From: Acanthamoeba castellanii str. Neff
Lineage: Eukaryota; Discosea; Longamoebia; Acanthamoebidae
Length of the DNA: 64,000 nt
NCBI RefSeq assembly: GCF_000313135.1
Contig: NW_004457532.1
Location: forward strand, 235,155 to 299,154
Direction of reading: 5' to 3'
This document shows, one piece after another, positions 25,138-51,966 of the stretch; the first letter of the stretch is position 1; every line of letters begins with the position of its first letter. A model generated the notes under the pieces. That model saw only the letters and a program-made list of their open reading frames with translations. It did not search any database and was not told the DNA's origin. The position numbers were made by a program, and so were the translations under genes.

Positions 25138-25173
<36 letters not shown>

Positions 25174-26881: not shown

Positions 26882-29800
26882 ATGGAGAAGGCCAATCTCA
26901 CAAATCTTATGAAGAAATTGGGGCAGCGAGCCCGACACTGCTACCCGCCATTCCTCTCGCTCAAGACCTACCCGGTAGTCGGACCCCTTCTCTTTCAATC
27001 ACTTCGCACCCTTTGGAGCCGAAAGGAGCAGGCTACGGCAATCTCGGCGGTTACAATTAGCGCAATCTATCTCTGGAAGAAATGGAAAGCCGTGCTGATT
27101 GGGGAGAAGGCCAAGCGATCATCATCGAAATCACTGCAGCGAGGGAAGGGACTTGCCGATGGCACGCGCACCTCCATCGCCATGGTGGATAGCACCTTCC
27201 TCCGACGACTCTGGCGGCTTCTCAAGATTCTCTATCCCTCTCTGCATTCGAACGAATCCCTCGTCACGTCTCTCCTCACTCTCCTCCTCCTCGCCCGCAC
27301 TCTACTGAGCCTCAAGATCGCCGAGGCCATGGGCTATAACGCCAAGTGCCTCGTGCAGCGCAAGCTCGACCGATTCATCTTCGGCGTCATCGCTTTGGGA
27401 ATCGTGGCCATCCCGACCGTCATTGTAAATTCCGGCGTTGCCTACTTCACGCAGATGCTGTCTCTCCTCTATCGCCGACGATTAAGTAGGCACGTGCACA
27501 AGATGTATCTCTCCGACCTTGCCTTCTACAAGGCCAACTTCGGTGGCAACATCGACAACATGTACACCCCACTCTCCCACCTCTCCTCGTCCACTTTTGA
27601 TTGTTTTTTTGTTATATTATTAAAAATTAATATTATGAATATATAATAATATATGTAGCATAAATGTATATTGATTTTCGTAAATTAAATCAATCAATTA
27701 ATAATATCATTTTCCTAATAATGATAAATGCACAGCGACCAGCGGGTGGCGCAAGACATCGAGCGGTTCTCGTCCTACTTGGCCAACCTCTACGGCAACG
27801 TGTTCAAGCCTGTCACCGACCTTGCTCTCTTTACTTCCAAGGCACGTCTCGAATCTCCTCGCCTCGCTCTCCCCGCACACGAGACCGTCCGGACGCGGTC
27901 TATCTTTGTTCCTGACCTCTTCATTTTTCAATGACACGCGCGCACAACACAACACACGCACACACCGGCGGTACAGTTGAGCGCTGTGATAGGGTATCGC
28001 GGTCCTCTCCTCATGTACATCTACTACATTATAAGCGGCCTCTTCCTGCGCTGGATCATGCCACCATTTCCCAAGGTAGGCCTCAGGCTTTCCCCGCATA
28101 GTTTCTTAGTCTAGAGGCCGCTCACACGACACGACACGACACGACACGACACGACACGACACGACACGACACGACACGACACGACACGACACGACACGAC
28201 GCCCCTGGCGCTCTCGTCCGCAGCTTACGGCGCATCAACAGCGGCTCGAAGGCGACTTTCGGCTCCGGCACTCGCGGCTCATTGGAAACAGTGAAGAGGT
28301 GGCCTTCCTCCGCGGCTCGTCGCGAGAGCGGCAGATCATCAACGCCGCGTTCGACCGCGTCTACGCCCACGCCGGCAACATTTTCAGGAAGCAGGCCGTT
28401 GTGTCCAGTGCGTTTGCGTTCACACTACCCACCAACCCGCCCGAGTGCCGAGAAGCTAACTCTCTCCCCCCCCACCCGCGCGTGCGGTTCGTCTTCCTTC
28501 GCAAAGTCGTGGACGAGCTGTTGGTTAAGTATGGTGCAACGATGGTGGGCTATTCTGTCGTCGCGTTCCCCGTGTTCGGTGGGACCTACAACACGCGACT
28601 TTCGGGTACTCCAAGCTTGGAGATGACCACCCAACTCTGTTATGCACGCGCGCGCGCGTGTGTGACCTACAACTGACCTGTTGTGTCGCGTGTGTCGTCT
28701 CCACAGGCTGGTCGCAGATGGGCGAGCTGCCGTTCCGAGAGGTCGATTCACTTCAATCGGAGATAGCGGCGTCGGTGACGGGCGACTACGTGCGCAACAC
28801 GCAGATCCTCATCAATTTGGCGCGGTACGTGTGCAGCGGGCTCCTTCTCCGTGCAGACGCGTCGCCGCGCGCGCACACCCGCTCAATCGCGTTGGATGTT
28901 CGCGCGCAGAGCAATCGGGCGATTGGTGATGCTGCACAAGGAGATCAACCTCCTCGCCGGCTACACGGGTCGGGTGTGGGATCTGCTGGCGCTACTGGAG
29001 ACCTTACAAGACAAGGGGGCGGCAGCCCCTCGCAAGCCCACAATCCCGCGGCTGATAGAAGGCGGCGGAAGAGGAGGAGGAGGAGAAGAAGAAGACGAGG
29101 GCTCCACCGCGCTCCGCGGAGAGTACGAAGAAAGCGACCACACCAAGCTGGAGGACGTGTCGATCGTGACCCCCGACGGCCTCGTGCTGGTGGAGGGGCT
29201 CACGTTCGACCTTCCCTACGGCAAGAACCTCCTCATCTACGGGCCCAATGGTACCGCATGCGCGCAATTCATCTGAACCAGCAGCGCGCACACACTCTGC
29301 TCAGACATGTCTCTGTGTAGGGTCGGGCAAGAGCAGCCTGTTCCGGGTGCTTTGTGGCCTGTGGCCGCTGGAGCGAGGCCGCATCACGCGACTGCCTGCC
29401 GAGGAGATCCTGTACATCCCCCAGCAGCCCTACCTGTCCTACGGATCGCTCCGTGACCAGGTCATCTACCCTCACTCACCGCTCGACTTTGAGGCCAAGG
29501 GTACGACAGACTCCCCTCTTCTCCCGCACGCGACGTGTCCCCCCACCCCCCAAATAGCCACAACCAGCGGCTGTGTTGACCCGTCGGTGATGGTGCGGGG
29601 TACAGGTACCTCGACAGAGCAGCTCGAGAACATCATGCACAGCCTCAACCTCTACTACCTCGTACAGCGCGAGGGGTGGGACAAAGTCTCTGATTGGAAT
29701 GAGGCCCTCTCCGGCGGAGAGAAGCAACGCCTTGTACTTGCCCGGTGCGTCTTACTCACGCTTGTGGCGTGAGGTGCGCAAACCGTTTCGGTCCCTCACC

Positions 29801-30165: not shown

Positions 30166-30492
30166 CGGCTCTGCCCGTCACCAATTTTGCCTTGCACCAC
30201 AATAAAATCGGTGACCAACACCAGCCAGCCGTCGCTCGAGAAACACCACCCGCTTGCAGGAAGCGTTATCTTCCAAAGGATTCGAGTGCAGGGAACAATT
30301 TTTCAACAATTTCTCGGAGAAACTCGCGCAGGAAGGCAAAGCAATATTATAATTGTGATTTTATTTTGGGCTTACTTTTTTAACTTTGGACAAGAGATGA
30401 GAGTGAATAAGACGCGAGAAGCGCGTCAAGGAGGAGATATATCAACATAAGTAATGGGGAGAATGGAGGAGGTCGCCGACTCGACGTGTGGC
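30166..30492. other. Convergent 3' intergenic gap
   Basis: 327 bp between the ABCD stop and the stop of the giant gene. An AATAAA hexamer at about 30201-30206, 36 bp after the ABCD stop, could be its polyadenylation signal. A second AT-rich patch (30340-30400) may serve the opposite gene. No coding sequence seen. Confidence 0.5.
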
Positions 30493-33400
30493 TTAGTTGA
30501 GCAGCACCCAGTCGATCGACTGAGTCTGGACCGTAGAGCCGGCCACACCGACGCGAGTGCGAGGCGAGTACATGTAGATGAAGACGTCATCCGAGTAGAG
30601 GTACTCGGTGTAGAAGTTGACCGAGGCCGTCGACATGTCCCTACCGTTGTACAGGTTGCCCACGAGGCCGGACGCGATGACGTTGACCATGTCCTCGAAG
30701 TCCCAGAAGGCGATGATCTTGTCCTCGCTGGAGCCCTTGAGCATGATGATGTCACCCACCTGGTAGTTGGTGGTGCTGATGCGGTGCACCATGGGGAGAT
30801 CAAGATCGACCGGCTCGAGCTGGTAGAAGGCACCACCGGGCAGGGCGAGTTCGTAGTAGTCGCTGGTCGCTGAGAGATCCTGGCCGGCAATGGCGAACGC
30901 GTAGAGGTAGTAGGCCAGAGGAGAGGCCGAGTCGGCAGCGACCGCGTCGAGCAGGTTGACAGGGAGGCCTGCGTTGAGGCCGGGGTAGGGGAACGACAGA
31001 GGCTTCTTGGTCAGCTCGAGGCGGCCGTCGAGGACGAGCTCGCCCGTGACGCTGACGTCGGCGTTGACGGTGAGGTCCTGGGCCAACGAGAGTACGTCGA
31101 GGAGGATCATCTGGCCAGCCACGGTGAGCTCCTGGTCGATGTAAACCGTCGAGCCGAGGCTCACGTGGCCGCCCACGGTGAGCTCACCACCGATGCTAGC
31201 CACGCTGGTGACACTAAGAGTTCCGGTGACACCCAGGCCGGCGTTGAGTTGGGCAGGGCCATCAAGGTTGAGCGAGGTGTCGATCTGGAGGTCGCCGGTG
31301 TAGATCTTGGTCGCGACGGTCAGCTCGGCGGCGATGTTGACAATGCCGTACAAGTTGGACGCGCCGATGACGCCAATATCGCGGGTGACGAACAGATCGT
31401 TGTCGGCGATGATGTCAGCATCGACGCTGAGGTCGGACAAGATCTCGGTGTAGCCATTGATGCGGGTGGCAGCGAGGTAGGTGGTTCCAGAGACGGTCAG
31501 GTCAATGCCGACATTGGCGGTGCCCACGACGTTCAGGCTGTTTTCGACGGTAGCGGAACCGGACGTGCTGAGGTCAGCACCGATGATGACGTCGGACGAG
31601 ACATAGAGATCGCTACCGAGGTTCGTGTTGCCGCTGACGGTGAGCGTTGTGCCGAGAGACGTGGCGGTTACGACGATCAGGTCGGAGCCGACAGTGAGGT
31701 CGCCGGTCGTGACGACGCTGCCCGTGTAGAGGACGGAGGTAATGGAGACCGAACCGCCAACCGTGGCGTCGCCGCTGATGAAGAGGTCATTGCTAATGGT
31801 GGGCTTAGTGGTGATGACGACTGGGCCGGTAAGGCTGGTGGTGCCCTGCACCAATACGTCCTGGAAGGTGGCAAGGCTGATGACCTCGAGCGTGCTGAGG
31901 CTGGTAGTGCCCGAGACGAGGAGGCCGGCGAGCGTGGAAGTGCCGGTCACGACAAGGCCGTTCTGCATCTCGACGACGCCGACCAGGGTGGTTTGGCCGT
32001 TGATGAAGGCATCGCCGGCCACGGTCATCTCGGCGCCGATGAAGGCGTCGTTGAGCACGATCAGGTTACCGCCGCCGGAACCGACAGCCCTCTTGAGGAC
32101 GGTGAGGCCGACGGTGAGATCGGCGTTGACTTCGACGTCGCTGGAGAACTCGGACGTTCCAGACACACTGAGCGTGCTCTGGAGGATGACGTCGTCGCTG
32201 GCAGTCAAGCTGGTGACAGTGGTCACATCGAGAGTCGAGACCCCGTCAACGGTGAGGTCTGCGAAGAGACGGACATCGCCAGTGAAGCGGGACTCCTGGC
32301 CCACGTCGAGGTCTCCGAAGATCTCGGTGCTGGCGAGGAAGAAGGCGTTGTCGGTTACGGACAACTCGCCGAGGAGCCTGGTCAGGCCGTCGACAGTAAG
32401 TTTGCCGCCAACGGTGGTCTGGCCGTCGACCGACAGGTCAGTGATGACGTGAGCGCTGCCGGTCACCGCGAGGTCGGAGGCAAATCTGGCGTTGCCGGCG
32501 ACGCTGAGGACGTTCTCGAGGTGGACGGTGTGGTGAACGGACAGGGTGTTGCCGATGCTGACGCCGGCGCTAACGGTCACAGTGTCGTCTACGGAGAAGG
32601 CTCCAGCGACGAAGACGGTACCACCGACGCTGAGCGTGTCGATCACGTGCATGCGCTCCGAGTAGGTGTCGGACTCGAGAGTAGCCGTTCCGGCGACCGA
32701 GAGAGCGTTGAGGAACCGCGAGAGGAGGGTTACTGACAAAGTCCCACCAACGCTGAGGTCCTGTGTGATGCCGACATCACCGCTGAGAGTGGCATCGCGG
32801 GCGACGGACAGGGTAGACGCAACGCTGAGCGGGCCAGTGAGGTCTGTGGCGCCAGCAACGGTGAGGTCGGCGTTAAGTTCAGTAGCGCCAACAACGGCGA
32901 GGCTGCCGAGGTTGGCCGTGTTCTCGACCACGAGGTCGCCGTTCGTCTCCAAGTTGCCGCCCACAGTCAGGAGGCCGCTAATCGACGCGTCGGCCACGAC
33001 GACCAGAGCGTCATTAAGCGTGGTCTCGCCGAGCACGACCAACCTGTCGCGCAGCGATGTCATGCCGCTGACGTGGAGAGTGCCGTCGACCTGGACGTTG
33101 GCGCCGAAGGCGGCGTCGTCGGACACACTGAGGTAGCGCTGCACCGACAGATCGAAGTCGACGAACAGCGTGCCAGTCACCTGGGCGTCGTCGTCCACGT
33201 AGAGATATTGGTGCAGCGTGGTCTCGCCCTGCACGTCCAGGTGCGACCCGAGGCTCGTCTCGCCCACGACCGTGAGATTGTTGCCCAGGCTGGTGATCTT
33301 CTCCACGAGCAGCTCGCCGTCCGTGTGCACGAAGCCGCGCACCGAGAAGTCGCCCAGCACGGCAGCGTCCGTGTTGACCGTGAGGTCGGTGTTGATCTCA

Positions 33401-36400
33401 ACGCTGCCCTGCACCAGGAGGTCGGCGCCCATGGTCGCGTCCGAAGCGAACGACGCCGCGCCGGCCACGTCGAGCGTGGAGAGCAGAGAAGTGGCCTGAG
33501 TCACGGTGAACTCGCCCGACACGAGAGCGTCGCCACCCACGGTGAGGTCGATATCCACCGACAGAGTGCCGGTGACGAGCGCACCGGCGTTGACGGTGAG
33601 AGCCGACTGGAGGGTCGTGGTGCCGGTCACCTCGAGCGAAGAGCCCAGAGTGGTGGCGCCCACGACGAGCAGCGTGTTGCCCAGGCTCGTGGCCTCTTCG
33701 ACAAACAGCGCGCCGTCCGTGCTGAGGTCGCCAAGTACCGACGCGTCGCCTGCAACGGTGGCATCGGTGTTGACCGCGAGGCTGCCCTGTACCAGCAGGT
33801 CGACGCCCATGGTCGCGTCCGAAGCGAACGACGCCGCGCCGGCCACGTCGAGCGTGGACAGCAGAGAAGTGGCCTGAGTCACGGTGAACTCGCCCGACAC
33901 GAGAGCGTCGCCACCCACGGTGAGGTCGATGTCCACCGACAGAGTGCCAGTGACGAGCGCATCGGCATTGACAGTGAGAGCCGACTGGAGGGTCGTGGTG
34001 CCGGTCACCTCGAGCGAAGAGCCCAGAGTGGTCTGGCCCACAACGATGAGGTCATCGCCGAGGCTGGTGGCCTGCTCGACGAACAGTGCGCCGTCGGTCT
34101 GCATGTTGCCGCTCACCGACATGACGCCGCTCACCGACGCGTCGGCCACGACGACCAGACTGTCCTCGAGCGTGGTCTCGCCCAGCACGACCAAGCCTGT
34201 CGCGCAGCGATGTCATGCCGCTGACGTGGAGAGTGCCGTCGACCTGGACGTTGGCGCCGAAGGCGGCGTCGTCGGACACACTGAGGTAGCGCTGCACCGA
34301 CAGATCGAAGTCGACGAACAACGTGCCAGTCACCTGGGCGTCGTCGTCCACGTACAGATATTGGTGCAGCGTGGTCTCGCCCTGCACGTCCAGGTGCGAC
34401 CCGAGGCTGGTCTCGCCCACGACCGTGAGATTGTTGCCCAGGCTGGTGATCTTCTCCACGAGCAGCTCGCCGTCCGTGTGCACGAAGCCGCGCACCGAGA
34501 AGTCGCCCAGCACGGCAGCGTCCGTGTTGACCGTGAGGTCGGTGTTGATCTCAACGCTGCCCTGCACCAGGAGGTCGGCGCCCATGGTCGCGTCCGAAGC
34601 GAACGACGCCGCGCCGGCCACGTCGAGCGTGGACAGCAGAGAAGTGGCCTGAGTCACAGTGAACTCGCCCGACACGAGAGCGTCGCCGGCCACGGTGAGG
34701 TCCGTGTCCACCGACAGAGTGCCGGTGACGAGCGCATCGGCATTGACGGTGAGAGCCGACTGGAGGGTCGTGGTGCCGGTCACCTCGAGCGAAGAGCCCA
34801 GAGTGGTGGCGCCCACGACGAGCAGCGTGTTGCCCAGACTCGTGGCCTCTTCGACAAACAGCGCGCCGTCCGTGCTGAGGTCGCCAAGTACCGACACGGC
34901 GCCAGCAACGGTGGCATCGGTGTTGACGGCGAGTCTGCCCTGTACCAGCAGGTCGACGCCCATGGTAACATCCGAGGCGAACGACGCCACACCGGCCACG
35001 TCGAGCGTGGAGAGCAGCGAAGTGGCCTGAGTCACGGTGAGCTCGCCCGACACGAGAGCGTCGCCGCCCACGGTGAGGTCCGTGTCCACCGACAGAGTGC
35101 CGGTGACGTGTGCATAGGCATTGACAGTGAGAGCCGACTGAAGGGTCGTGGTGCCGGTCACCTCGAGCGAAGAGCTCAGAGTGGTCTGGCCCACAACGAC
35201 GAGGTCGTCGCCGAGGCTGGTGGCCTGCTCGACGAACAGCGCACCGTCGGTCTGCATGTTGCCGCTCACCGACATGATGCCGCTCACCGACGCGTCGGCC
35301 CTGATGAAGAGGTCGTCCTCGAGCGTGGTCTCGCCCAGCACGACCAACCTGGCGCGCAGCGACGTCGACCCAGTGACCACGGCGGAGCCATCGACCTGCA
35401 GGGCACCCTTGACCCAGGCCTCGTTCTCGATGACCACGTCACGGCCAACCGACAGGTCCAGGTCGGCCCACAGCGTGCCGGAGACGGCCGCCTCGTTGGT
35501 GACCGAGAGGTAGTTGTGGATGGTGGTCTCGCCCTGCACGTCGAGCCGGGCGCCGAGGGTGGTGGCGCCCACGACGAGCAGCGTATTGCCCAGGCTCGTG
35601 GCCTCCTCGACAAACAGCGCGCCGTCGGTGTTGACATCGCCGCGCACCGACGCGTCGCCTGCAACGGTGGCATCGGTGTTGACCGCGAGGCTGCCCTGCA
35701 CAACGAGATCGACGCCCATGGTCGCGTCCGAAGCGAACGACGCCGCGCCGGCCACGTCGAGCGTGGAGAGCAGCGAAGTGGCCTGCGTCACGGTGAACTC
35801 GCCCGATACGAGAGCGTCGCCGCCCACGGTGAGGTCCGTGTCCACCGACAGAGTGCCGGTGATGTGTGCATCGGCGTTGACGGTGAGAGCCGACTGGAGG
35901 GTCGTGGTGCCGGTCACCTCGAGCGAAGAGCCCAGAGTGGTCTGGCCCACAACGACGAGGTCGTCGCCGAGGCTCGTGGCCTCCTCGACAAACAGCGCAC
36001 CGTCCGTGCTGAGGTCGCCAAGTACCGACGCGTCGCCTGCAACGGTGGCATCGGTGTTGACCGCGAGGCTGCCCTGTACCAGCAGGTCGACGCCCACAGC
36101 GACATCCGTGGCGAACGACGCCGCGCCGGCCACGTCGAGCGAGGAGAGCAGAGAAGTGGCCTGAGTCACAGTGAACTCGCCCGACACGAGAGCGTCGCCA
36201 CCCACGGTGAGGTCGATGTCCACCGACAGAGTGCCGGTGACGAGCGCATCGGCATTGACAGTGAGAGCTGACTGAAGGGTCGTGGTGCCGGTCACCGCGA
36301 GCGAAGAGCCCAGAGTGGTCTGGCCCACAACGATGAGGTCGTCGCCGAGGCTGGTGGCCTGCTCGACGAACAGCGCGCCGTCGGTCTGCATGTTGCCGCT

Positions 36401-39400
36401 CACCGACATGATGCCGCTCACAGACGCGTCGGCCACGACGACCAGACTGTCCTCGAGCGTGGTCTCGCCCAGCACGACAAGCCTGTCGCGCAGCGACGTC
36501 ATGCCGCTGACGTGGAGAGTGCCGTCGACCTGGACGTTGGCGCCGAAGGCGGCGTCGTCGGACACACTGAGGTAGCGCTGCACCGACAGATCGAAGTCGA
36601 CGAACAGCGTGCCAGTCACCTGGGCGTCGTCGTCCACGTAGAGATATTGGTGCAGCGTGGTCTCGCCCTGCACGTCCAGGTGCGACCCGAGGCTCGTCTC
36701 GCCCACGACCGTGAGGTTGCTGCCCAGGCTGGTGATCTTCTCCACGAGCAGCTCGCCATCCGTGTGCACGTCGCCGCGCACCGACACGAGGCCGGCCACG
36801 AGCACGTTGTCGTGGAAGGCCGCCTGGCTGTCGACTGCGAGCTCGCCCTTGACCGACGAGGCGCCGTCGACCTGCGACTTGCCGCTGACGCCAAGGTCGC
36901 CGGCGACGAAGGTGTTCCTGCCGACGAGCACGTCGCGCTCGACCGAAACGTCCCAGTTGGCGTAGAGGGTGCCCACAACCTCGGCGTCGTTGTTGACCAA
37001 CACGTAGCCGTTGAACGCGCTGTCGCCAGTGACGGCGAGCTCGCCATTGAGGCTTGCATCGGATCTGACCACAAGAGTGCCGCCGAGGCTGGTGGCCTCC
37101 TCGACAAACAGGCGGCCGCTGGTGCTGAGGTCGCCATGCACGGAGGCATCGGCGAGGACGTCGACATTAGAGCTGACAACCAGGTTGCCCTCGACGAGCG
37201 CGTCGTTAGCCACGGTCAGGTCAGCAGCAAAGACGGCGTCGCCCGTGACGTCGAGCGTGGAGAGCAGAGAAGTGGCCTGAGTCACAGTGAACTCGCCCGA
37301 CACGAGAGCGTCGCCGCCCACGGTGAGGTCCGTGTCCACCGACAGAGTGCCGGTGATGTGCGCATCGGCGTTGACGGCCAGAGCCGACTGGAGGGTCGTG
37401 GTGCCGGTCACCTCGAGCGAAGAGCCCAGAGTGGTCTGGCCCACAACGATGAGGTCGTCGCCGAGGCTGGTGGCCTGCTCGACGAACAGCGCGCCGTCGG
37501 TCTGCATGTTGCCGCTCACCGACATGATGCCGCTCACCGACGAGTCGCCCCTGACGAAGAGGTCGTCCTCGAGCGTGGTCTCGCCCAGCACGACCAGCCT
37601 GTCGCGCAGCGATGTCATGCCGCTGACGTGGAGAGTGCCGTCGACCTGGACGTTGGCGCCGAAGGCGGCGTCGTCGGACACACTGAGGTAGCGCTGCACC
37701 GACAGATCGAAGTCGACGAACAGCGTGCCAGTCACCTGGGCGTCGTCGTCCACGTAGAGATATTGGTGCAGCGTGGTCTCGCCCTGCACGTCCAAGTGAG
37801 ACCCGAGGCTCGTCTCGCCCACGACCGTGAGATTGTTGCCCAGGCTGGTGATCTTCTCCACGAGCAGCTCGCCATCCGTGTGCACGAAGCCGCGCACCGA
37901 GAAGTCGCCCAGCACGGCAGCGTCCGTGTTGACCGTGAGGTCGGTGTTGATCTCAACGCTGCCCTGCACCAGGAGGTCGGCGCCCATGGTCGCGTCCGAA
38001 GCGAACGACGCCGCGCCGGCCACGTCGAGCGTGGAGAGCAGAGAAGTGGCCTGCGTCACGGTGAGCTCGCCCGACACGAGAGCGTCGCCGCCCACGGTGA
38101 GGTCCGTGTCCACCGACAGAGTGCCGGTGACGAGCGCATCGGCATTGACAGTGAGAGCCGACTGAAGGGTCGTGGTGCCGGTCACCTCGAGCGAAGAGCT
38201 CAGAGTGGTCTGGCCCACAACGACGAGGTCGTCGCCGAGGCTGGTGGCCTGCTCGACGAACAGCGCACCGTCGGTCTGCATGTTGCCGCTCACCGACATG
38301 ATGCCGCTCACCGACGCGTCGGCCCTGACGAAGAGGTCGTCCTCGAGCGTGGTCTCGCCCAGCACGACCAACCTGGCGCGCAGCGACGTCGACCCAGTGA
38401 CCACGGCGGAGCCATCGACCTGCAGGGCACCCTTGACCCAGGCCTCGTTCTCGATGACCACGTCACGGCCAACCGACAGGTCCAGGTCGGCCCACAGCGT
38501 GCCGGAGACGGCCGCCTCGTTGGTGACCGAGAGGTAGTTGTGGATGGTGGTCTCGCCCTGCACGTCGAGCCGGGCGCCGAGGGTGGTGGCGCCTATGACG
38601 AGCAGCGTGTTGCCCAGGCTCGTGGCCTCTCGACAAACAGCGCGCCGTCGGTGTTGACATCACCGCGCACCGACACGTCGCCAGCAACGGTGACATCGGT
38701 GTTGACGGCGAGGCTGCCCTGCACCAGGAGGTCGACGCCCACAGCGACATCCGAGGCGAACGATGCCAGGCCGGCCACGTCGAGCGTGGAGAGCAGCGAA
38801 GTGGCCTGAGTCACAGTGAACTCGCCCGACACGAGAGCGTCGCCGCCCACGGTGAGGTCCGTGTCCACCGACAGAGTGCCGGTGATGTGCGCATCGGCGT
38901 TGACAGAGAGCCGACTGGAGGGTCGTGGTGCCGGTCACCTCGAGCGAAGAGTCCAGAGTGGTCTGGCCCACGACGACGAGGTCGTCGCCGAGGCTGGTGG
39001 TCTTCTCGACGAACAGGTCGCCGTCCGTGTGCACGCTGCCGCGTACCGACAGCTCGCCAAGAACCACGGCGTCATCGTCCACGACAAGGTTGCCCTGCAT
39101 AAAGGCGTTGTTGGCGACCGTGAGGTCGGCACCGAAGTACGCCTCGCCCGCAACGCTGAGGGTGGCCTGCAGCTCGGTGGTCTGCTTCACGACCAGGTCG
39201 CCGAGGACGCTGGTGTCGCGGCCGACGATGACGTCCCAATCCACCGACAGAGTGCCGGTGATAAACGCGTTGTGGTTGACGGTGAGAGCCGACTGGAGGG
39301 TCGTGGTGCCGGTCACCTCGAGCGAAGAGCTCAGGGTGGTCTGGCCCACAACGACGAGGTCGTCGCCGAGGCTGGTGGCCTTCTCGACGAACAGGTCGCC

Positions 39401-42400
39401 GTCCGTGTGCACGCTGCCGCGTACCGACAGCTCGCCAAGAACCACGGCGTCATCGTCCACGACAAGGTTGCCCTGCATAAAGGCGTTGTTGGCGACCGTG
39501 AGGTCGGCACCGAAGTACGCCTCGCCCGCAACGCTGAGGGTGGCCTGCAGCTCGGTGGTCTGCTTCACGACCAGGTCGCCGAGGACGCTGGTGTCGCGGC
39601 CGACGATGACGTCCCAATCCACCGACAGAGTGCCGGTGATAAACGTGTTGTGGTTGACGGTGAGAGCCGACTGGAGGGTCGTGGTGCCGGTCACCTCGAG
39701 CGAAGAGCTCAGAGTGGTGGCGCCCATGACGATAAGGTCGTCGCCGAGGCTGGTGGCCTGCTCGACGAACAGCGCACCGTCGGTCTGCATGTTGCCGCTC
39801 ACCGACATGATGCCGCTCACCGACGCGTCGCCCCTGACGAAGAGGTCGTCCTCGAGCGTGGTGACGTCGATGACGAGAAGGGTGTAACCAAGAGATGTCG
39901 CGCCGTTGATGGCCGCGCCGCTTTCGCCCACAATATCGCCGCGAATGGTGGCGTCGCTGCCCACGACCAGGTGGCGCTCCACCGACAGATCAAAGTCGAC
40001 GAACAACGTGCCACTCACCTGGGCGTCGTCGTCCACGTAGAGGTATTGGTGCAGCGTGGTCTCGCCCTGCACGTCCAGGTGCGACCCGAGGCTCGTCTCG
40101 CCCACGACCGTGAGGTTGCTGCCCAGGCTGGTGATCTTCTCCACGAGCAGCTCGCCATCCGTGTGCACGTCGCCGCGCACCGACACGAGGCCGGCCACGA
40201 GCACGTTGTCGTGGAAGGCCGCCTGGCTGTCGACTGCGAGCTCGCCCTTGACCGACGAGGCGCCGTCGACCTGCGACTTGCCGCTGACGCCAAGGTCGCC
40301 GGCGACGAAGGTGTTCCTGCCGACGAGCACGTCGCGCTCGACCGAAACGTCCCAGTTGGCGTAGAGGGTGCCCACAACCTCGGCGTCGTTGTTGACCAAC
40401 ACGTAGCCGTTGAACGCGCTGTCGCCAGTGACGGCGAGCTCGCCATTGAGGCTTGCATCGGATCTGACCACAAGAGTGCCGCCGAGGCTGGTGGCCTTCT
40501 CCACGAACAGGTCGCCGTCCATGTGCACGTCCCCGCGCACCGACAGCTCCGAATCGAGAAGCGCGTCTCCGCCGACGAAAAGCTCGTTGTTGAGCGAGGC
40601 AACGCCGTCCACGACGATGCGTGACCGCATCAGAGCATCGCCTTCGACTGAGAGCGTGGCGCCGACCCACACAGTGCTGTCGGCATAGACGGCGCCGACA
40701 AGCGACGCCTCTCCGTTGACGAAGAGGTTCACCTCCACCATGGCATCCTTGCCGACAACCAGGTGCTCGGTGACGGTGGCGGCAGCGTTGACGAGCAGGT
40801 CGCTCTGGAGCGTGGTCTCACCGACGACGAAGAGAGTCTCGCCGAGGCTGGTGGCCTTCTCCACGAACAGGTCGCCGTCCGTGCGCACGTCTCCTCGCAC
40901 AGAGACCGAGCCACGCACTGACGCCTCTCCCGCGACCTCCAAGTGCTGGCCAACGGTAGCGCTTTCCGCAATGTCGACGTTGGCGCCCACCGTCATGTCC
41001 TCAGCGAACGAGGACAGACCGTCGACGTAAAGACCGTCGCGCAGCTCGGTGAACTTGTCCACCTGGAGCTCGCCGCCGACGAGCACGTCCGCCAGCGCGC
41101 GCACGATGCCCTCGACGGTGGCCGTTCTGGTCACGGTGAGCGACTGCGAGATTTCGACGTTGGCATCCACGAACACGTCGTCCAGGAGCGTGGTCTCGCC
41201 CACGACGAGAAGAGTCTCGCCGAGGCTGGTGGCCTTCTCCACGAACAGGTCGCCGTCCGTGTGCACGTCCCCGCGCACCGACAGCTCGCCCTCGACCAGC
41301 ACGTCGGCGCGGGCCGTGACCTGCTGCGTCAAGGTCGAGGCTCCGTCCACCACGAGGCCGCCCTGAAGCGACGTGTGACCGCCGACCAAGGCATCCGTGT
41401 CGACGCGCACGTCGCCCTTGATCCATGCGTCCTCTCCACCACGGCATTGCGCTCGACGGAGAGATCGTAATCGACCCACAGAGTGCCTGTGACTTCGGCG
41501 TCGTCGGTAACGCGGAGATATTGGTGCAGCGTGGTCTCGCCCTGCACGTCCAGGTGCGATCCGAGGCTCGTCTCGCCGCCGACGAAGAGGGTCTCGCCGA
41601 GGCTGGTGGCCTTCTCCACGAACAGGTCGAGGTTGATGCGCACATCGCCCTCCACCGACACGAGCCCGCCGAAGTCAGCATCGCCGTCCACATCGAGCTC
41701 GCCGTCCACATCGAGGTCGCCGCTCACGTCTACGTTGGCGCCCACCGTCATGTCCTCGGCGAACGAGGACAGACCGTCGACGTAAAGACCGTCGCGCAGC
41801 TCGGTGAACTTGTCCACCTTGAGCTCGCCGCCGACGAGCACGTCCGACAGCGCGCGCACGATGCCCTCGACGGTGGCCGTTCTGGTCACGGTGAGCGATT
41901 GCGAGATCTCGACGTTGGCATCCACGAACACGTCGTCCAGGAGCGTGGTCTCGCCCACGACGAAGAGGGTCTCGCCGAGGCTGGTGGCCTTCTCCACGAA
42001 CAGGTCGCCGTCCGTGTGCACGTCCCCGCGCACCGACAGCTCCGAATCGAGAAGCGCGTCTCCGCCGACGAAAAGCTCGCTGTTGAGCGAGGAAACGCCG
42101 TCCACGACGATGCGTGACCGCAGCAGGGCATCGCCTTCGACTGAGAGCGTGGCGCCGACCCACACGGTGCTGTCGGCATAGACGGCGCCGACAAGCGACG
42201 ACTCCCCGTTGACGAAGAGGTTCGCCTCCACCACGGCATCCTTGCCAACCGTTAGATTGTCATGGACGGTGGCATCGGCGTTAACAAGCAGGTCGTCTTC
42301 GAGCGTGGTCTCACCGACGACGAAGAGAGTCTCGCCGAGGCTGGTGGCCTTCTCCACGAACAGGTCGCCGTCCGTGTGCACGTCCCCGCGCACCGACAGC

Positions 42401-45400
42401 TCGCCGTAAACGTGCGCGTCAGCGAGCGCGTGCAAGTCTGACTGGAGCGAGGTCTCGCCGGCGACGTTGAGGGTCTCGCCGACAAGAGCGTTGCGATTGA
42501 CTTCGAGATCGCCCTTGACGGAGACATCGCGGCCAATGACGGTGTCGCGAGCCACCGAGAGGTCGTTACCCGCGAACACATCGCCCAAGAGGGTCGACTC
42601 ACCCGTCACCTCGACGCTGGCCGCAGCGAAGAGAGTCTCCATGAGCGTGGTCTCGCCGCCGACGAAGAGGGTCTCGCCGAGGCTGGTGGCCTTCTCCACG
42701 AACAGGTCGAGGTTGATGCGCACATCGCCCTCCACCGACACGAGCCCGCCGAAGTCAGCATCGCCGTCCACATCGAGCTCGCCGTCCACATCGAGGTCGC
42801 CGCTCACGTCCACGTTGGCGCCCACCGTCATGTCCTCGGCGAACGAGGACAGACCACCGACGTAAAGACCGTCGCGCAGCTCGGTGAACTTGTCCACCTG
42901 GAGCTCGCCGCCGACGAGCACGTCCGACAGCGCGCGCACGATGCCCTCGACGGTGGCCGTCTTGGTCACGGTGAGCGACTGCGAGATCTCGACGTTGGCA
43001 TCCACGAACACGTCGTCCAGGAGCGTGGTCTCGCCCACGACGAAGAGAGTCTCGCCGAGGCTGGTGGCCTTCTCCACGAACAGGTCGCCGTCGGTGCGCA
43101 CGTCCCCGCGCACCGACAGCTCGCCCTCGACCAACACGTCGGCGCGGGCCGTGACCTGCTGCGTCAAGGTCGAGGCTCCGTCCACCACGAGGCCGCCCTG
43201 AAGCGACGTGTGACCGCCGACCAAGGCATCCGTGTCGACGCGCACGTCGCCCTTGATCCATGCGTCCTGCTCCACCACGGCATTGCGCTCGACGGAGAGA
43301 TCGTAATCGACCCACAGAGTGCCTGTGACTTCGGCGTCGTCGGTAACGCGGAGATATTGGTGCAGCGTGGTCTCGCCCTGCACGTCCAGGTGCGATCCGA
43401 GGCTCGTCTCGCCGCCGACGAAGAGGGTCTCGCCGAGGCTGGTGGCCTTCTCCACGAACAGGTCGCCGTCCGTGCGCACGTCCCCGCGCACCGACAGCTC
43501 GCCGTAAACGTGCGCGTCAGCGAGCGCGTGCAAGTCTGACTGGAGCGAGGTCTCGCCGGCGACGTTGAGGGTCTCGCCGACAAGAGCGTTGCGATTGACT
43601 TCGAGATCGCCCTTGACGGAGACATCGCGGCCAATGACGGTGTCGCGAGCCACCGAGAGGTCGTTACCTGCGAACACATCGCCCAAGAGGGTCGACTCAC
43701 CCGTCACCTCGACGCTGGCATCGACAAAAGTGTCGTCCAGGAGCGTGGTCTCGCCCACAACGAGAAGAGTCTCGCCGAGGCTGGTGGCCTTCTCCACGAA
43801 CAGGTCGCCGTCCGTGTGCACGTCCCCGCGCACCGACAGCTCCGAATCGAGAAGCGCGTCTCCATTGACGAAAAGCTCGCTGTTGAGCGAGGCAACGCCG
43901 TCCACGACGATGCGTGACCGCAGCAGGGCATCGCCTTCGACTGAGAGCGTGGCGCCGACCCACACAGTGCTGTCGGCATAGACGGCGCCGACAAGCGACG
44001 ACTCCCCGTTGACGAAGAGGTTCGCCTCCACCACGGCATCCTTGCCAACCGTTAGATTGTCATGGACGGTGGCATCGGCGTTAACAAGCAGGTCGTCTTC
44101 GAGCGTGGTCTCACCGACGACGAAGAGAGTCTCGCCGAGGCTGGTGGCCTTCTCCACGAACAGGTCGCCGTCCGTGTGCACGTCCCCGCGCACCGACAGC
44201 TCGCCGTATACATCAGCGTCAAAATCCACAAGCAGCGAGCCGTCGATTTGAGCGTTGCCACCGATGAACACGTCCGACTGAAGCGATGTCACACCAGTTA
44301 CAGCGAGGCTAGACTGCACTTGGGCGTCGCCGGAAACATCGAGATCCTGGCCGATGCTCACGTAACCGGTAACGAAGGCATCGTGACTAGCGAAGACCGA
44401 GCCGACCAGCGACGAAATGCCGCCCACGGTAAGGGCCTGGCCAATCTCGGTGTCCTCGTCGACAGTGAGCGAGGCGTGAAGCTTGACTTCTCCAGTGACG
44501 TCGAGCGAGGCTTCGAGCGAGGCCGATCCGACGACGACGAGGGTGGCGCCGAGGCTGGTGGCCTTCTCCACGAACAGATCACCGTCCGTACGGATGTTGA
44601 CGCGCACAGACAGCTCGCCTCCGACGTTGGTGTTCTGGGCAACGTGAAGCGACTTGTCGAGGTAGGTATTGCCGTAGACGAACACGTCATCGTTGAGGGA
44701 GGAAATTCCCGTGACGGCAAGGTTAGCCTGGACGAAGGCGTCACCACCCACCTCAAGGTCCTCACGGACGACTGCGCTGGCACCGACGTAGACATTGCCA
44801 TCGAGTGACGAGTCTCCACCGACGCGGAAGTCGGCCGAAACGACGGCGTTGTGACCTACGGAGAGCGAGTCGGAAACGTCGGCCGTGCCTGTGACCACGA
44901 GCGCATCGTCGATGGTGGTCGCACCGACGACGAAGAGGGTCTGACCGAGGCTGGTGGCCTTCTCCACGAACAGGTTGCCGTCCGTGTGCACGTCCCCGCG
45001 CACCGACAGGTCAGCGCCAACCGAGGCGGACTGAACAACCTCGAGCTGCTGGTCGACATGCGCGGTGCCGTAGATCCACACGTTGTCACCAAGGGTAGAC
45101 TTCCCGGAGACAGCGAGGTTGCTCGCCAGGAGAGTGTTGCCGGTGACTTTGAGATCGCCTTGCACAGACGCGTCGCGACCGACGACGGCATCGCGAGCAA
45201 CGGAAAGATCGGTGCCGGCGAACACATCGCCGTCGAGCGAGGACTTGCCGCTGACGTGCGCATCCGCGTCGACGAGAAGGTTGCTAGCAAGAGTAGTCTC
45301 GCCGACGACGAAGAGAGTCTCGCCGAGGCTGGTGGCCTTCTCCACGAACAGGTCGCCGTCCGTGTGCACGTCCCCGCGCACGGACAAATCGCCACCGACG

Positions 45401-48400
45401 AGAGTATTGTCCTCGACGCGAAGGTCCTTGTCGATGTGCGTGTTTCCGTAGATCCATACATTGTCGCTCAGCGACGCCGTGCCGGTTACGGCAAGGTGGC
45501 CATCAACGAAAGCGTTACCGGTCACTTCGAGATCGCCTTGCACAGCAGCGTTGCGTCCGATGTAGGCGTCTCGGGCAACAGACAGATCGTTACCGGCGGA
45601 CACATCGCCAAGAAGTGCGGACTCGGCGGCTACCGAAAGGACACCAGCGACGTGAGCGTTGGAGGCCGCGACAAAGTCGCCAGATACAGTGGCCGCGCCA
45701 CCGACGAAGAGAGTCTCGCCGAGGCTGGTGGCCTTCTCCACGAACAGGTCGCCGTCCGTGTGCACGTCCCCGCGCACCGACAGCTCGCCCTCGACCAACA
45801 CGTCGGCGCGGGCCGTGACCTGCTGCGTCAAGGTCGAGGCTCCGTCCACCACGAGGCCGCCCTGAAGCGACGTGTGACCGCCGACCAAGGCATCCGTGTC
45901 GACGCGCACGTCGCCCTTGATCCATGCGTCCTGCTCCACCACGGCATTGCGCTCGACGGAGAGATCGTAATCGACCCACAGAGTGCCTGTGACTGCAGCG
46001 TCGTCGGTAACGTAGAGATATTGGTGCAGCGTGGTCTCGCCCTGCACGTCCAGGTGCGATCCGAGGCTCGTCTCGCCGCCGACGAAGAGGGTCTCGCCGA
46101 GGCTGGTGGCCTTCTCCACGAACAGGTCGCCGTCCGTGTGCACGTCCCCGCGCACCGACAGCTCCGAATCGAGAAGCGCGTCTCCGCCGACGAAAAGCTC
46201 GCTGTTGAGCGAGGCAACGCCGTCCACGACGATGCGTGACCGCATCAGAGCATCGCCTTCGACTGAGAGCGTGGCGCCGACCCACACAGTGCTGTCGGCA
46301 TAGACGGCGCCGACAAGCGACGACTCCCCGTTGACGAAGAGGTTCACCTCCACCACGGCATCCTTGCCGACAACCAGGTGCTCGGTGACGGTGGCGGCAG
46401 CGTTGACGAGCAGGTCGCTCTGGAGCGTGGTCTCACCGACGACGAAGAGAGTCTCGCCGAGGCTGGTGGCCTTCTCCACGAACAGGTCGCCGTCCGTGCG
46501 CACGTCCCCGCGCACCGACGCAAGACCCGACACGGCGAGGTTCTCGCCCACGGCAACGCTGCCGCTCACGTCCACGTTGGCGCCCACCGTCACGTCCTCG
46601 GCGAACGAGGACAGACCGTCGACGTAAAGACCGTCGCGCAGCTCGGTGAACTTGTCCACCTTGAGCTCGCCGCCGACGAGCACGTCCGACAGCGCGCGCA
46701 CGATGCCCTCGACGGTGGCCGTCTTGGTCACGGTGAGCGACTGCGAGATCTCGACGTTGGCATCCACGAACACGTCGTCCAGGAGCGTGGTCTCGCCCAC
46801 GACGAGAAGAGTCTCGCCGAGGCTGGTGGCCTTCTCCACGAACAGATCGCCGTCGGTGGCAACATTGCCTCGCACGGAGGCGGCGCCGAGAACGGATAGG
46901 TCCGATTTGACGTTGGCGTTCCCACGCATGTATACGTTGTCGTTGAGCGAGGTAACGCCATCAACATGCGTGTTGCCGACCACTGATAGACCAGAACCGA
47001 CCCACACGTTGCTGTCGGCGTACACGGCGCCAACCAGAGAGGTCTCGCCAGCGACGGCCAAGTTGTGCTCCACCTGCGCGCTGTGCGCAACGTTGAGGTC
47101 ATCGGTAATGGAGACCGAGGCCTCCACGCGCAGGTTGCTCTGGAGGGTGGTCTCGCCTACGACGAGAAGTGCAGCGCCGAGGCTGGTGGCCTTCTCCACG
47201 AACAGGTCGAGGTTGATGCGCACATCGCCCTCCACCGACACGAGCCCGCCGAAGTCAGCATCGCCGTCCACATCGAGCTCGCCGTCCACATCGAGGTCGC
47301 CGCTCACGTCCACGTTGGCGCCCACCGTCATGTCCTCGGCGAACGAGGACAGACCACCGACGTAAAGACCGTCGCGCAGCTCGGTGAACTTGTCCACCTT
47401 GAGCTCGCCGCCGACGAGCACGTCCGACAGCGCGCGCACGATGCCCTCGACGGTGGCCGTCTTGGTCACGGTGAGCGACTGCGAGATCTCGACGTTGGCA
47501 TCCACGAACACGTCGTCCAGGAGCGTGGTCTCGCCCACAACGAGAAGAGTCTCGCCGAGGCTGGTGGCCTTCTCCACGAACAGGTCGCCGTCCGTGCGCA
47601 CGTCACCACGAACCGAGGCCGAACCAGAAACGTGCAGTTCCTGCGTGACGTGTGCGAAGCTCAACGAAGCCGTGCCGGAGACGGCGAGGTCGCCTTCGAC
47701 GAGAGCATCGCCGCGGACGCCAAGAGTGCCCACGACTTCGGCGTCGCGGCCGATGTACACATCACGGACGACAGAAAGATCATTCTGAGCCACAAGGTCG
47801 CTGGAGAAAGTAGCCTGGCCGACGACATCCAGGGTGCCCTGGACGGCGGCGTTGGAGCCTGCAAGGAGGTCGCCGCCAACGGTGGTCTCGCCGACGACGA
47901 AGAGGTCCTGACCGAGACTGGTGGCCTTCTCCACGAACAGGTCGCCATCCGTCTGCACGTCCCCGCGCACCGACAGCTCCCCGGTAACCGCTAGCTGCTC
48001 GCGCACGTCGAGGCTGCCATCGACCGCGGCGTTGGCAGTTACGATGACGTGGTCGCTGAAGGTGGAAACACCAGCGACGCGAAGATTGCCGGCGATCTGA
48101 GCTGAACCATCGACGCTGAGTTGGCCGCCCACAAGGACGTCGCTAACGCCGTGCAAGACTCCTTGAACCGTAGCGGCCTTGGTGACGGTAAGCGTCTGGG
48201 TGACTTCAACTGAAGCCGAGACAAGCAGAGTGTCCTCAAGAGTGGTACGGCCGCCGACGATGAGGCTCTGGCCGACGCTGGTGGCAAGCTCCACGAAGAG
48301 CGCTCCGTTGGTGCGCACGTCACCCTCAACCGAGAGGAGACCGCCGAATTCGGCAGCGCCGTCAACGTCGAGGTCGCCGTCCACTTCCACGTTGGCACCC

Positions 48401-51400
48401 ACGGTGACGTCCTCGGCGAACGAGGACAGACCGTCGACGTGGAGGCCACCACGCAGCTCAGCGAACTTGTCCACCTGGAGCTCGCCGCCGACGAGCACGT
48501 CCGACAGCGCGCGCACAGCGGCTTCGAAGGTGGAGGTCTTGGCGATGGTAAGGGTCTGCGAGACCACGACGTTGGCATCCACAAACAGGTCGCCCTGGAG
48601 AGTGGTCTCGCCCACGACGACGAGGTCGACGCCGAGGCTGGTGGACTTCTCCACGAACAGGTCGCCATCCGTATGCACGTTGCCGCGCACCGACAGCTCG
48701 CCGCCCACAACGGCAGACTCGACAACGTGGAGATCATTGCTGACGCGAGCCGATCCATAAACGAAGACGTCGTCGCTAAGCGAGGATACACCGGTCACCG
48801 CAAGGTTACCCTCGACGAGCTGGTTTCCGCTGACTTCGAGATCACCACCGACGTGAGCATCCTTGGTGTGAAGCACGCCATTGACGGAGGCCTCGCCAAG
48901 AAGGTAGGTGGTTCCGACGACTTCGAGTGAGTCAGCAAGAGTGGTCTCGCCGACGACGAGAAGGGCGGCGCCGAGGCTGGTGGCCTTCTCCACGAGGAGC
49001 TCGTCGCCGAAGCGGGCCTGCGATCTAACGGTCAGCTCGCCGGTCACGTCGGCATCCTCACGGACATAGAGGCTCTCGCCAACGCGGACGTCGTTCGCGA
49101 GCGTGGCGACTCTGTCCACGGAGAGTTTGCCTCGGATCTCGACGCTTTCACCGACATGGACGTCCTCGGCAATCCAGGCACTGCGGCCGGCGTAGACGAA
49201 GCCATTGAGCGAGGAGTCGCCACCGACGGACAAGTCCGAAGCCACGTGAGCGCTGTTTGCGTATGCGTCGGAGCCGACGCTGAGCTCGCCAATCACGTGA
49301 GCGGAGCCGCCAACAAGGATTTCTCCTCTTACCTCGGCGTCCTCGTCCACAGTAAGATATCTTCCGACGAAGGCGTCGAGGCTGATGTCGACGCCCTTCA
49401 AAAATTGGGCCTGCTGGTGCACGTCGAGCTCGCCGCCGACGTTGAGGTTGAGGTCCACGTCGACGTTGTTGCCGAACGACGCAGCCGACTGGACGCCGAG
49501 AGTTCCGGTGACCTCGGTGTCGCCGTTGATAAGCACGATGCCGCTGACTTGGACGTTGCCATCGAGAGTCGAAAGGCCGGTGACCGCAAGACCGCTTCCG
49601 CCGACGTTGAGACCGCTGGAGTCGATTTCGCCCTCGACAACGAGGGGTGCGCTAATCCGGACCTGCTCTTCGAAGTGAGCCCCCTGCTTGACGTGGAGGG
49701 AACCCTCGACCTCGGTGGTGGCGTCAGTGCGGCCAAGGTGGGCGGCACCGTGCTGGCTCGCGATGCGGACGACGCCGGCGGCACCGCCATCACCACCATC
49801 GATGAGGACGTCGCCACCCTGGGCGCCAGCACCGCCGTAACCGGCGGCGAAGATGAGGTCTCCACCGCCGTTGACTCCGCTCTGACCGAGGATCGCCGTG
49901 TTGTGCGCCGACGTGGAGGTAGCGTCCGGGCGCGACATGGTGAACGCATGGTCGCCCGACCCGACAATGATCTCAGAGCCGGCGACGACCAAGTTCTCCT
50001 CAACGACAGCGCTGGTGACGGTGACAGAGCCGCCCTCGACGTAAAGCTGACCGCGAATGACCACGTCAGCGTCGGCTTGACCGATTTCGACGCCGCCATT
50101 TCTGGTGGCGATCTTCACTATACCGTTCTCGCCGTTGTCGCTGGAACCGGCGTCGAGGTAGAGATCTCCGCCCCTGTTACCGGGCTGAGCGTCCTGAGCG
50201 CTGAAGTAAGTCGAGTAGGCGGGACCCTCGTCCAACCGAATAGGCCTGGTGGCGTGGAAGGGTGAGGTGGGCGATCCCAGCTCGAGATCTCCGGTGAGCG
50301 CAACGTCGGCCAAGTTGGTGCTGCCGGTCACGGTGACATCTCCGTTGAGAGTCGTAGATCCGCCTTCGTGGCTGACCTCGACAGAGCTGCTCGAGGTACC
50401 GATGTAGACGGCTCCGTTGCTCTCGCTGCCGTGACCACCATCGATCGAGATGGAGCCGCCCAGGGTTGAGCGACGACCGGTGATCTCGGACACGACGATG
50501 GATTCGGCGTTGAGATTGTTCACGTTGACCTCGCTAGCGGGAATGTCAATGGTCGAGTCCTCTCCTCCGAGATGAAGCACGGATGCGGTCTGACCGACGA
50601 AGACCTCGCCCTTGACGGCTCCCTCACCTGCGTTCAGGTACAGGTTACCGCCGGCAGTGAGACCGCTTCCCGCCGCAATGTGAACGTCTCCACCGGCGCC
50701 GCCAGAGTTGGACTGACCCTCGAGCGAAGTCGCGAGTCCGCTACCATCCGGCCGAGAGAAGGTGAACGCCCCCGAGGCGGTACCAAAGGCGACCTCCGAC
50801 GTCGCAAAGCTGGCGCCTCCGGACACGGTGAGGGTCTCGAGCGCGGCCTCGCCCTCAACAGTGAGCCCACTGAGGAGGGCATCTCCGCTGACCTCGAGCT
50901 CGTCGGCGTGGACGAAACCCGCGGTGAGGTTGGCCAGCGAGGCCTCTGAGGCCGAGAGAGTTCCAATTTCGGCGTCCTCCGCGCTTACGCTGGTGACCTC
51001 GGCGTTCCCGACCGTGGCTCTCTCGGCGTAAAGATCGACGATCGACACCGATCCTTCGACGGTGACGACAGCCGCGTTGTCGCCCAGGCGAATCTCGCGA
51101 GCATCAACGACGACCGTCTCGCCGGAGATGACGAAACTGTCTTCGGCTGCTGAGAGCGAGCCCTTGTCGCCCACTACGAGCTCGGAAACCGCGGCTGACT
51201 GCGCAGCCAGGTTGGTGGCCGAGACCAGCTCCGCAGTCACGCTGGCTACGTTGGTCTCGCCGTTTACTGTGATGTCACCCTCGAAAACTGTATCGTTTCC
51301 CTTCACATAGAGTTGGCCATCGACTGTGAAGTCGCCGTGCAGTTCTCCTGATCCATCTGCCTCAAACACTACTTCCGCTCTGTAAGGGGGAATAGATTGA

Positions 51401-51608
51401 CATTGCGTTAGAAATTAAAACCATGATCATTGTGGGATCTAGAGAATTCGAGGATCAAGATCAACTGATGTAGACGGAAGTAGGAGTAGCACGGAGGGGG
51501 AGAGAGAGAGAAAGAGAAAGGGAGTAGCGGAGGAGGATCGAACCCTTGGCCTTTGCTGACACTTACGGAGAGGAGGGCTAGGAAGAGCAGTAAGTAAGCC
51601 CGATTCAT
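30493..51608 (-). CDS. Giant secreted hexad-repeat beta-solenoid protein, about 6,980 residues (frame interrupted by four small indels)
   Basis: Exon 1 is 51608-51544 (MNRAYLLLFLALLSVSVSKG, a signal peptide) with a GTTCGA donor. Exon 2 runs 51379-30493, acceptor TTACAG, phase 2 closing as GlyAlaGlu. Residues about 23-680 are a mixed beta-rich region. Then roughly 500 tandem 12-residue units follow, pattern [LIV]-x-V-x-x-x-[AT]-x-[LV]-x-x-x, interspersed with 18-residue units (for example LSVDWDVIVGRDTSVLGD). All are multiples of six. A C-terminal cap of about 180 non-repeat residues (31010-30493) ends SIDWVLLN. No transmembrane segment and no cysteine in the array are visible. Frame changes occur near 41429 (-1), 38903 (-2), 38628 (-1) and 34192 (+1); each is absent from sister repeats. 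Phage tail fibres and bacterial or viral surface proteins carry similar LTVxGNxT-type repeats. I infer an extracellular fibre or coat protein. No function is established. Confidence 0.85.
31010..49400 (-). repeat. Protein-coding tandem repeat array with higher-order units
   Basis: The array is built of 36-bp units (12 codons) and 54-bp units (18 codons) arranged in larger blocks of about 0.38 to 1.1 kb. Blocks containing GCTGACGTGGAGAGTGCC recur at about 33068, 34208, 36504 and 37620 with near-identical flanks. A 378-bp block (126 codons = nine 12-mers plus one 18-mer) is duplicated in tandem at about 38960-39715. Identity between blocks is highest in the 33-43 kb half and falls towards both ends, where single units still keep the 12-residue rhythm. 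Confidence 0.9.
49400..51379 (-). other. N-terminal region of the giant protein with Gly-Gly-Asp blocks
   Basis: Upstream of the regular array the protein contains three blocks with the pattern FTFSRPD...GQSNSGGAGGDVHIAAG...GGNLYLNAG, GNRGGDLYLDAGSSDNG, and GQSGVNGGGDLIFAAG...GGDVLIDGGDGG. Each is followed by a strand pair ending I-G/L-G. They are longer than 12 residues and spaced roughly 130-150 residues apart. Between them, 6-residue beta periodicity (VSAEDAEIGTLSASEASL) persists. Comparable GGDL-AG segments occur in large surface proteins of bacteria, algae and DNA viruses; that comparison is from memory of motif style, not from a search. Confidence 0.6.
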
Positions 51609-51966
51609 GACTGCTCTTCTTTGTCCACCTTCGTTCGCCAAGTGTAGTTGCTAGCTAGAGGTGCTGCGGCCGTGTGTGAGTAAAACAAGAAGACTACTCG
51701 AGCCGACCGCCCGCGACTTTACGTGTTCCCCTGCCCGCTACGCACCCGAAACGTTTGGGCGGCCAATACCAAAAAATGCTGTTTTTGTTTGTACTTTTAT
51801 ACCAACCGAGGACTCCTATTTGGCCTCAGTCTCTCATTTCTCGCATTCCAGGTGGAATTTCGCAATCCAGCAATAACTTCGGAATTCACACTCTTTTTTA
51901 TCTGGGATTGAATATTCATAATAATCAACATCGACCCAACACGAAAAAGAAGGTCATTGCGAGACA
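51609..51966. promoter_or_regulatory. Divergent promoter region between the giant gene and the sulfurtransferase
   Basis: 358 bp separates the two ATGs. The half nearest the sulfurtransferase is AT-rich (51765-51945), ending in GAATATTCATAATAATC. The half nearest the giant gene is GC-rich. Both promoters should be here. No named element recognised. Confidence 0.45.

What the first reader, a model, noticed from the sequence alone, without database searches (positions are those of the whole stretch)
30493..51608. A 7,000-residue secreted hexad-repeat beta-solenoid encoded by an amoeba
The protein has a signal peptide, roughly 500 units of 12 residues (two hexads) plus 18-residue units (three hexads), and a non-repeat C-terminal cap. 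All unit lengths are multiples of six, as expected for a triangular solenoid with three six-residue strands (18 residues) per turn, the geometry of hexapeptide beta-helices and similar to bactofilins. If one turn adds about 0.48 nm, the array would span roughly 0.15-0.2 micrometre; this is an inference from repeat length only. Similar LTVxGxxT repeats are familiar from phage tail fibres and bacterial adhesins. I know of no described amoebal protein of this design. It could be a surface coat, cyst-wall or adhesion fibre.
Basis: partly seen in the sequence, partly recalled or inferred. Interest (0 to 1): 0.92.

Follow-up and report, generated by a model that had tools for sequence, protein, structure and literature searches.

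The report
Giant secreted beta-helix rod in Acanthamoeba
An Acanthamoeba gene carries about 500 copies of a twelve-amino-acid pattern that should fold into one very long, stiff rod meant for export from the cell; it belongs to a little-known eukaryotic family, although the genome assembly shows it broken into several reading frames.

Summary
The array is real: about 18.7 kb of a 20.9-kb minus-strand gene, no in-frame stop in 6,807 codons examined, strong hexad rhythm. It is not one open frame: in four places the frame changes by one- or two-base length differences against the best sister repeats (92.7-99.6% identical), with no intron. A protein of ~7,000 residues therefore needs these to be assembly errors; pN/pS of 0.28-0.39 among close copies in the two largest pieces makes that likely, not proven. 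AlphaFold2 gives 49 strands at an unbroken six-residue step over a 301-residue slice (pLDDT 84.9), closest to right-handed beta-helices. The C-terminal cap recurs in a eukaryotic transcript protein, P0008 (34% over 131 residues); pattern scans of viral and prokaryotic contigs found no relative. New here: N-glycosylation sequons are almost absent, 9 against about 59 expected, lower than in each of 121 homologues tested, and there is no cysteine, which fits an exported protein kept bare. Pfam's Bactofilin hit reflects rhythm and fold; membership is not supported. Best reading: a secreted beta-helical rod of about 165 nm; function is inferred only.

The parts
51567..51608 (-). candidate signal-peptide exon, core MNRAYLLLFLALLS shared by all frame-keeping forms; it may reach further, for example to 51544
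   Evidence: ATG and sequence read; hydropathy peak 3.0 over 9 residues; exon ends enumerated
51361..51566 (-). candidate intron (donor GTAAGT, 206 bases); alternatives include 51543-51380
   Evidence: 23 frame-keeping pairs from 8 donors and 9 acceptors; no transcript
49660..51360 (-). N-terminal region with three glycine-rich modules (by eye), before the array
   Evidence: similar modules in EukProt protein P0125; no Pfam match up to E 1
41329..49659 (-). hexad array, frame-1 piece (end of P0004); its last ~40 codons lie past a frame change
   Evidence: PF04519 2.5e-55 over the whole P0004
38660..41479 (-). hexad array, frame-0 piece (P0003); a frame change lies near each end
   Evidence: PF04519 6.2e-26
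34052..38563 (-). hexad array, frame-0 piece (P0002), super-repeats of 126 residues (378 bases); its last ~50 codons lie past a frame change
   Evidence: PF04519 1.7e-47
30973..34194 (-). hexad array, frame-1 piece (start of P0001), ragged towards the cap
   Evidence: PF04519 1.6e-16
30493..30972 (-). C-terminal cap of about 160 residues
   Evidence: shared with P0008, 34% over 131 residues; single match in this genome; no Pfam, NCBIfam or significant PDB match; not confidently folded
51795..51801 (-). TATAAAA, about 190 bases before the ATG
   Evidence: function inferred
30360..30365 (-). AATAAA downstream of the stop
   Evidence: function inferred

Best explanation
A gene of Acanthamoeba for a secreted protein that is, for most of its length, one right-handed triangular beta-helix of about 340 turns, a stiff rod of roughly 165 nm. 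A signal peptide sends it into the ER (inferred). Its sequence avoids N-glycosylation sites and cysteines (shown), so the faces of the rod stay bare and can pack or bind (inferred). A short module region sits at one end and a conserved eukaryotic cap at the other (shown as sequence; roles inferred). No membrane anchor is seen, so it would be held in the coat or extracellular matrix by one end and act as a spacer or adhesion fibre whose length is set by repeat number (inferred). The array grows and shrinks by duplication of 360-378-base blocks (the blocks are shown, the process inferred). The frame changes are most likely assembly errors in near-identical repeats (inferred).
Confidence: 0.55

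Rival explanations
1. The gene is broken or recently dead: the frame changes are real, and only about the first 3,360 residues (signal exon to 41329) can be made.
For: Four one- or two-base length differences, in zones whose best sister copies are 92.7-99.6% identical; piece B pN/pS 1.3 among copies at least 95% identical (15 pairs).
Against: No stop in 6,807 in-frame codons; pN/pS below 1 in pieces C and D beyond the changes; sequon and cysteine avoidance continue through all pieces; conserved cap at the far end. Long near-identical repeats are where read correction is weak (recalled).
Confidence: 0.15
2. The fibre is a trimer, three chains wound into a triple beta-helix as in phage tail fibres, rather than a single-chain solenoid.
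For: Phage tail and baseplate PHROGs match the array; PMC5537660 (title and start of abstract in the listing) describes a T4 tail-fibre region, and the term triple beta-helix occurs 19 times in it.
Against: Single-chain models fold well and superpose on beta-helix chains; no Peptidase_S74 match in P0001 or the cap. Trimers were not modelled.
Confidence: 0.12
3. An intracellular bactofilin-like scaffold polymer, not exported.
For: PF04519 over the cut-off in all four pieces; P0008 lacks an obvious signal peptide.
Against: Signal-like exon; sequon count at 0.15 of expectation, lower than in each of the 121 homologues tested, which has no obvious reason in the cytosol; array more than fifty times one bactofilin domain.
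Confidence: 0.08
4. A structural layer of the cyst wall rather than of the feeding cell.
For: The most abundant cyst wall proteins of A. castellanii are secreted and built of tandem repeats of domains (PMC6541295, passages).
Against: In that paper's main text the words solenoid, hexapeptide, helical and beta-helix have 0 occurrences; its supplements were not read. Nothing here tells the stages apart.
Confidence: 0.1

Closest known systems
Bactofilins (PF04519)
   Same: Right-handed triangular beta-helix (PMC12448750, passages) with repeats of 16-18 residues (PMC4372379, passages); Pfam score over cut-off in four of four pieces
   Different: Bactofilins are about 110 residues with flexible tails and sit at the cytoplasmic membrane of bacteria; here about 6,170 residues behind a probable signal peptide, with a cap
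Phage and giant-virus fibre-like proteins with LTVxGxxT repeats, some with Peptidase_S74 (PF13884)
   Same: Same 12-residue unit (P0006; lag 12); 29 BFVD models at E <= 0.001, among them algal giant viruses and cyanophages, though with TM-scores of 0.12-0.45 by model length
   Different: No S74 match in P0001 or the cap; no viral relative of the cap found
Right-handed beta-helix adhesins (EtpA, autotransporter passengers, tapirins)
   Same: Fold of the model; secreted, extended rods (recalled)
   Different: No sequence relation shown; bacterial export routes; far shorter
Left-handed hexapeptide helices (LpxA, GlmU)
   Different: Superposes only at rmsd 11.7-12.6; no nucleotidyltransferase domain among the Pfam matches of the four pieces
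EukProt transcript protein P0008 (2,048 residues, organism not shown)
   Same: Hits over 100% of P0001 at 26% and the same cap
   Different: Shorter and more divergent array, 15 cysteines, no clear signal peptide

Membership tests
Bactofilin | Pfam PF04519 over gathering score | tested here: met
   4 of 4 pieces, E 1.6e-16 to 2.5e-55
Bactofilin | single domain of about 110 residues with unstructured tails | tested here: not met
   array of about 6,170 residues, about 2,700 of them in one open frame; definition from PMC12448750 passages
Bactofilin | cytoplasmic, membrane-targeting N-terminus | tested here: inconclusive
   signal-like exon instead, splicing not shown
Bactofilin | polymerises into non-polar filaments | not testable with these tools
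   needs purified protein
Peptidase_S74 fibre proteins | C-terminal S74 chaperone (PF13884) | tested here: not met
   no such match in P0001 or the cap
Left-handed hexapeptide acyltransferases | left-handed helix | tested here: inconclusive
Left-handed hexapeptide acyltransferases | acyltransferase or nucleotidyl domain | tested here: inconclusive
   no nucleotidyltransferase domain among the Pfam matches; NCBIfam acyltransferase matches lie in the repeats, one of them (TIGR03570) over its cut-off
P0008 cap family (eukaryotic) | cap homology at the C-terminus after a hexad array | tested here: met
   34% over 131 residues, pairwise E 8e-18; the cap-only database search gave none at E <= 1e-3
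Right-handed beta-helix fold | parallel strands stacked in three-sided turns | tested here: inconclusive
   predicted models only: strand step of six and superposition favour it, but coordinates were not inspected and turn length was not measured

The most novel reading that the evidence does not exclude
A eukaryotic family of secreted, deliberately unglycosylated giant beta-helix rods with a cap of their own: among the longest single-chain solenoids proposed, with rod length set by repeat number and hence expected to vary between strains like a ruler, and an ER-passing protein under measurable selection against N-glycan sites along its whole length.
Probability: 0.4. Interest if true: 0.78.

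Novelty: new variant of a known kind. Interest (0 to 1): 0.58.

Why it matters
If right, an amoeba builds from one chain what bacteria build by polymerising bactofilins or exporting adhesins: a rod of over a hundred nanometres. The near-absence of sequons gives a sequence test of export that does not need the signal peptide, and points to a surface that must stay bare. The cap marks a eukaryotic family that matched nothing in the Pfam and NCBIfam copies searched, which makes its spread and partner testable.

Tried and rejected
Tried without result: cap against the protein database (none at E <= 1e-3 of 1,301 candidates; P0008, which shares the cap, did not reach that threshold there), viral contigs (63 pattern matches, none confirmed), prokaryote genomes (105 pattern matches, none confirmed), PDB by profile (best E 0.52). 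The cap stayed unfolded in the model (pLDDT under 50), so its fold is open. A second profilin locus gave no PDB match at E <= 1e-20, perhaps read on the wrong strand; not pursued. A paralogue was suspected on contig C190 (E 7.8e-9); its DNA is a low-complexity repeat with long frames on both strands, and I rejected it. Introns at the frame changes: rejected, since sister copies align through all four zones, the best with one- or two-base gaps (weaker copies show further gaps). My first reading that the GTAAGT donor keeps no frame was wrong: one search found an acceptor for it. 12 against 18 residues per turn: lag identity favours 12, but that can reflect duplication; 18 is favoured only by superposition on 3p4g (turns of about 19 residues, recalled) and by the bactofilin likeness. 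Ice binding was considered from the 3p4g likeness and dropped for want of evidence. Identity of the assembly: Table 1 of PMC11702301 (section 5; passages) holds no 38.4 Mb entry with 250 scaffolds; left open. Literature: 'Acanthamoeba' with 'bactofilin' gave one paper, on giant viruses by its title; 'amoeba' with 'polymer-forming cytoskeletal' none. Listings (9 of 9; 5 of 5; 8 of 33; 5 of 5) showed no such amoebal protein in titles or starts of abstracts. The library holds open-licence papers only. PADLOC was not searched.

Full report
Setting. The window is G000:C94:235155-299154 of a 38.4 Mb assembly in 250 contigs. A profilin gene of that genome matches the PDB chain profilin II 1f2k at E 6e-78 and two profilin I entries at 2e-66; the next profilin has 1.3e-33. 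That these three are from Acanthamoeba is recalled; species and strain are not settled.

What is there. On the minus strand a hexad array runs from about 49.7 kb to 30.97 kb. A region of about 570 residues with three glycine-rich modules (by eye) precedes it and a cap of about 160 residues follows. Identity within the pieces peaks at lags 12, 24, 36 and 126. VILFM residues fall in one mod-6 phase with shares 0.402, 0.448 and 0.479 in three pieces; the highest of 1,000 shuffles each was 0.205-0.231. By 60-residue windows the phase holds through P0002, P0003 and P0004 from about residue 1,260 to its end; it slips by one residue several times in earlier P0004 and is ragged in the last half of P0001. 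Tandem Repeats Finder gives 16.9 copies of 378 bases at 33386-39781 (66% matches) and 3.3 copies of 360 bases at 46422-47616 (64% matches). My sum for the array is about 6,170 residues: about 510 twelve-mers, or about 340 turns of 18.

The frame problem. No frame spans the array. The open stretches are 51414-41329, 41674-38660, 38659-34052 and 34212-30493, with a bridge of about 100 residues in another frame near 38.9-38.6 kb. In all four change zones the best sister copies (99.6, 93.8, 92.7 and 97.8% identical) align straight through, differing by a one- or two-base gap, so these are not introns. Either the assembly errs there or the gene is broken. For error: 0 stops in 6,807 codons, where 2.05% of single substitutions would make one; pN/pS well below 1 in close copies of piece A (0.39, 0.39), C (0.36, 0.28) and D (0.36, 0.11; 9 pairs), and 0.46 and 0.42 between A and B; and the conserved cap at the far end. 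Against: within piece B the ratio is 0.59 (3 pairs) and 1.3 (15 pairs, on pS 0.005 and pN 0.007). Pairs come from overlapping windows and are not independent. Very recent real changes cannot be excluded.

Export. A start at 51608 opens MNRAYLLLFLALLSVSVSKGQ, with a hydropathy peak of 3.0. 23 GT-AG pairs would join this exon to the array in frame without a stop; the pair with the consensus-like donor GTAAGT (51566) and acceptor AG ending at 51361 keeps MNRAYLLLFLALLS. No transcript is held. An independent line: N-x-S/T occurs 9 times in 6,807 residues against 58.7 (range 41-81) in 500 shuffles that keep the hexad phase. S or T two after N is 0.15 of expectation, the lowest of 16 residue types at that distance. 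Since repeats are not independent, contexts were clustered: 4 of 142 are sequons, where S+T make up 0.191 of residues (binomial 5e-9). The same measure in 121 homologues (the 120 listed of 186 found, and P0125) runs from 0.107 upward, median 0.254; P0008 is second lowest at 0.131. Other pairs deviate as well (D+1 0.38, H+3 0.31, K+2 2.5), so repeat grammar may explain part of it. In the four pieces there is no cysteine, D+E is 995 against K+R 248, no 19-residue stretch exceeds hydropathy 1.64, and the C-terminus is not a GPI tail by eye. I read this as an exported, anchorless, acidic protein kept free of N-glycans.

Relatives. P0001 finds 186 proteins at E <= 1e-3 among 7,990 scored; 120 were listed. 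Among the listed, one comes from EukProt: P0008, 26% over 100% of the query. Its last part matches the cap, 34% over 131 residues, with YEVGD/YQVGD, GNIYNGR/GNLYNGR and SDELFIYMYSPR/SDDVFIYMYSPR (alignment A1). The cap has one match in this genome, and none was found, nor any of note. P0125, also EukProt, shares the N-terminal modules (35% over 24% of the region, E 4.3e-5, the only hit among 2,218 candidates). The hexad array itself may well be convergent: profiles for bactofilin, hexapeptide transferases and even unrelated families fire on it, so these names are not evidence of descent. In phages the mid slice matches 6 records at E <= 1e-10, none over 80% of the query.

Context. Downstream lies a convergent ABC transporter gene (PF06472 at 26882-27646, PF00005 at 29248-29772). 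Upstream, on the plus strand, lies what reads like a sulfurtransferase gene starting near 51967 (by eye, not tested). TATAAAA at 51801-51795 and AATAAA at 30365-30360 frame the gene.

Verdict. A real and unusual eukaryotic gene, ordinary in its building block and uncommon in length, in its cap and in its avoidance of N-glycan sites. The fold rests on models, export on sequence, and function on inference. Whether the whole length is made depends on resequencing.

Noticed in passing
window 61001-64000: GC falls from about 0.60 to 0.43 and GC skew to -0.375; a 327-residue ORF at 61272-62255 + without Pfam match at E <= 0.001 lies at its edge. Perhaps an inserted element.
   Followed up: partly
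L014 (G000:C190:70000-78500): Long open low-complexity repeats (PSTxxx-like and PAPTVV-like), giving a false hexad hit on the other strand.
   Followed up: partly
window 51609-51966: About 360 bases between two divergent genes (this one and a plus-strand gene that reads like a sulfurtransferase), possibly a shared promoter region.
   Followed up: no
P0008 and P0039 (database proteins): Lowest sequon shares among the 121 homologues (0.131 and 0.107); P0008 is eukaryotic, which fits export of the family.
   Followed up: no
window 23879-25597 -: Open frame of 572 residues without Pfam match at E <= 0.001, AT skew 0.343 over 24001-25000.
   Followed up: no
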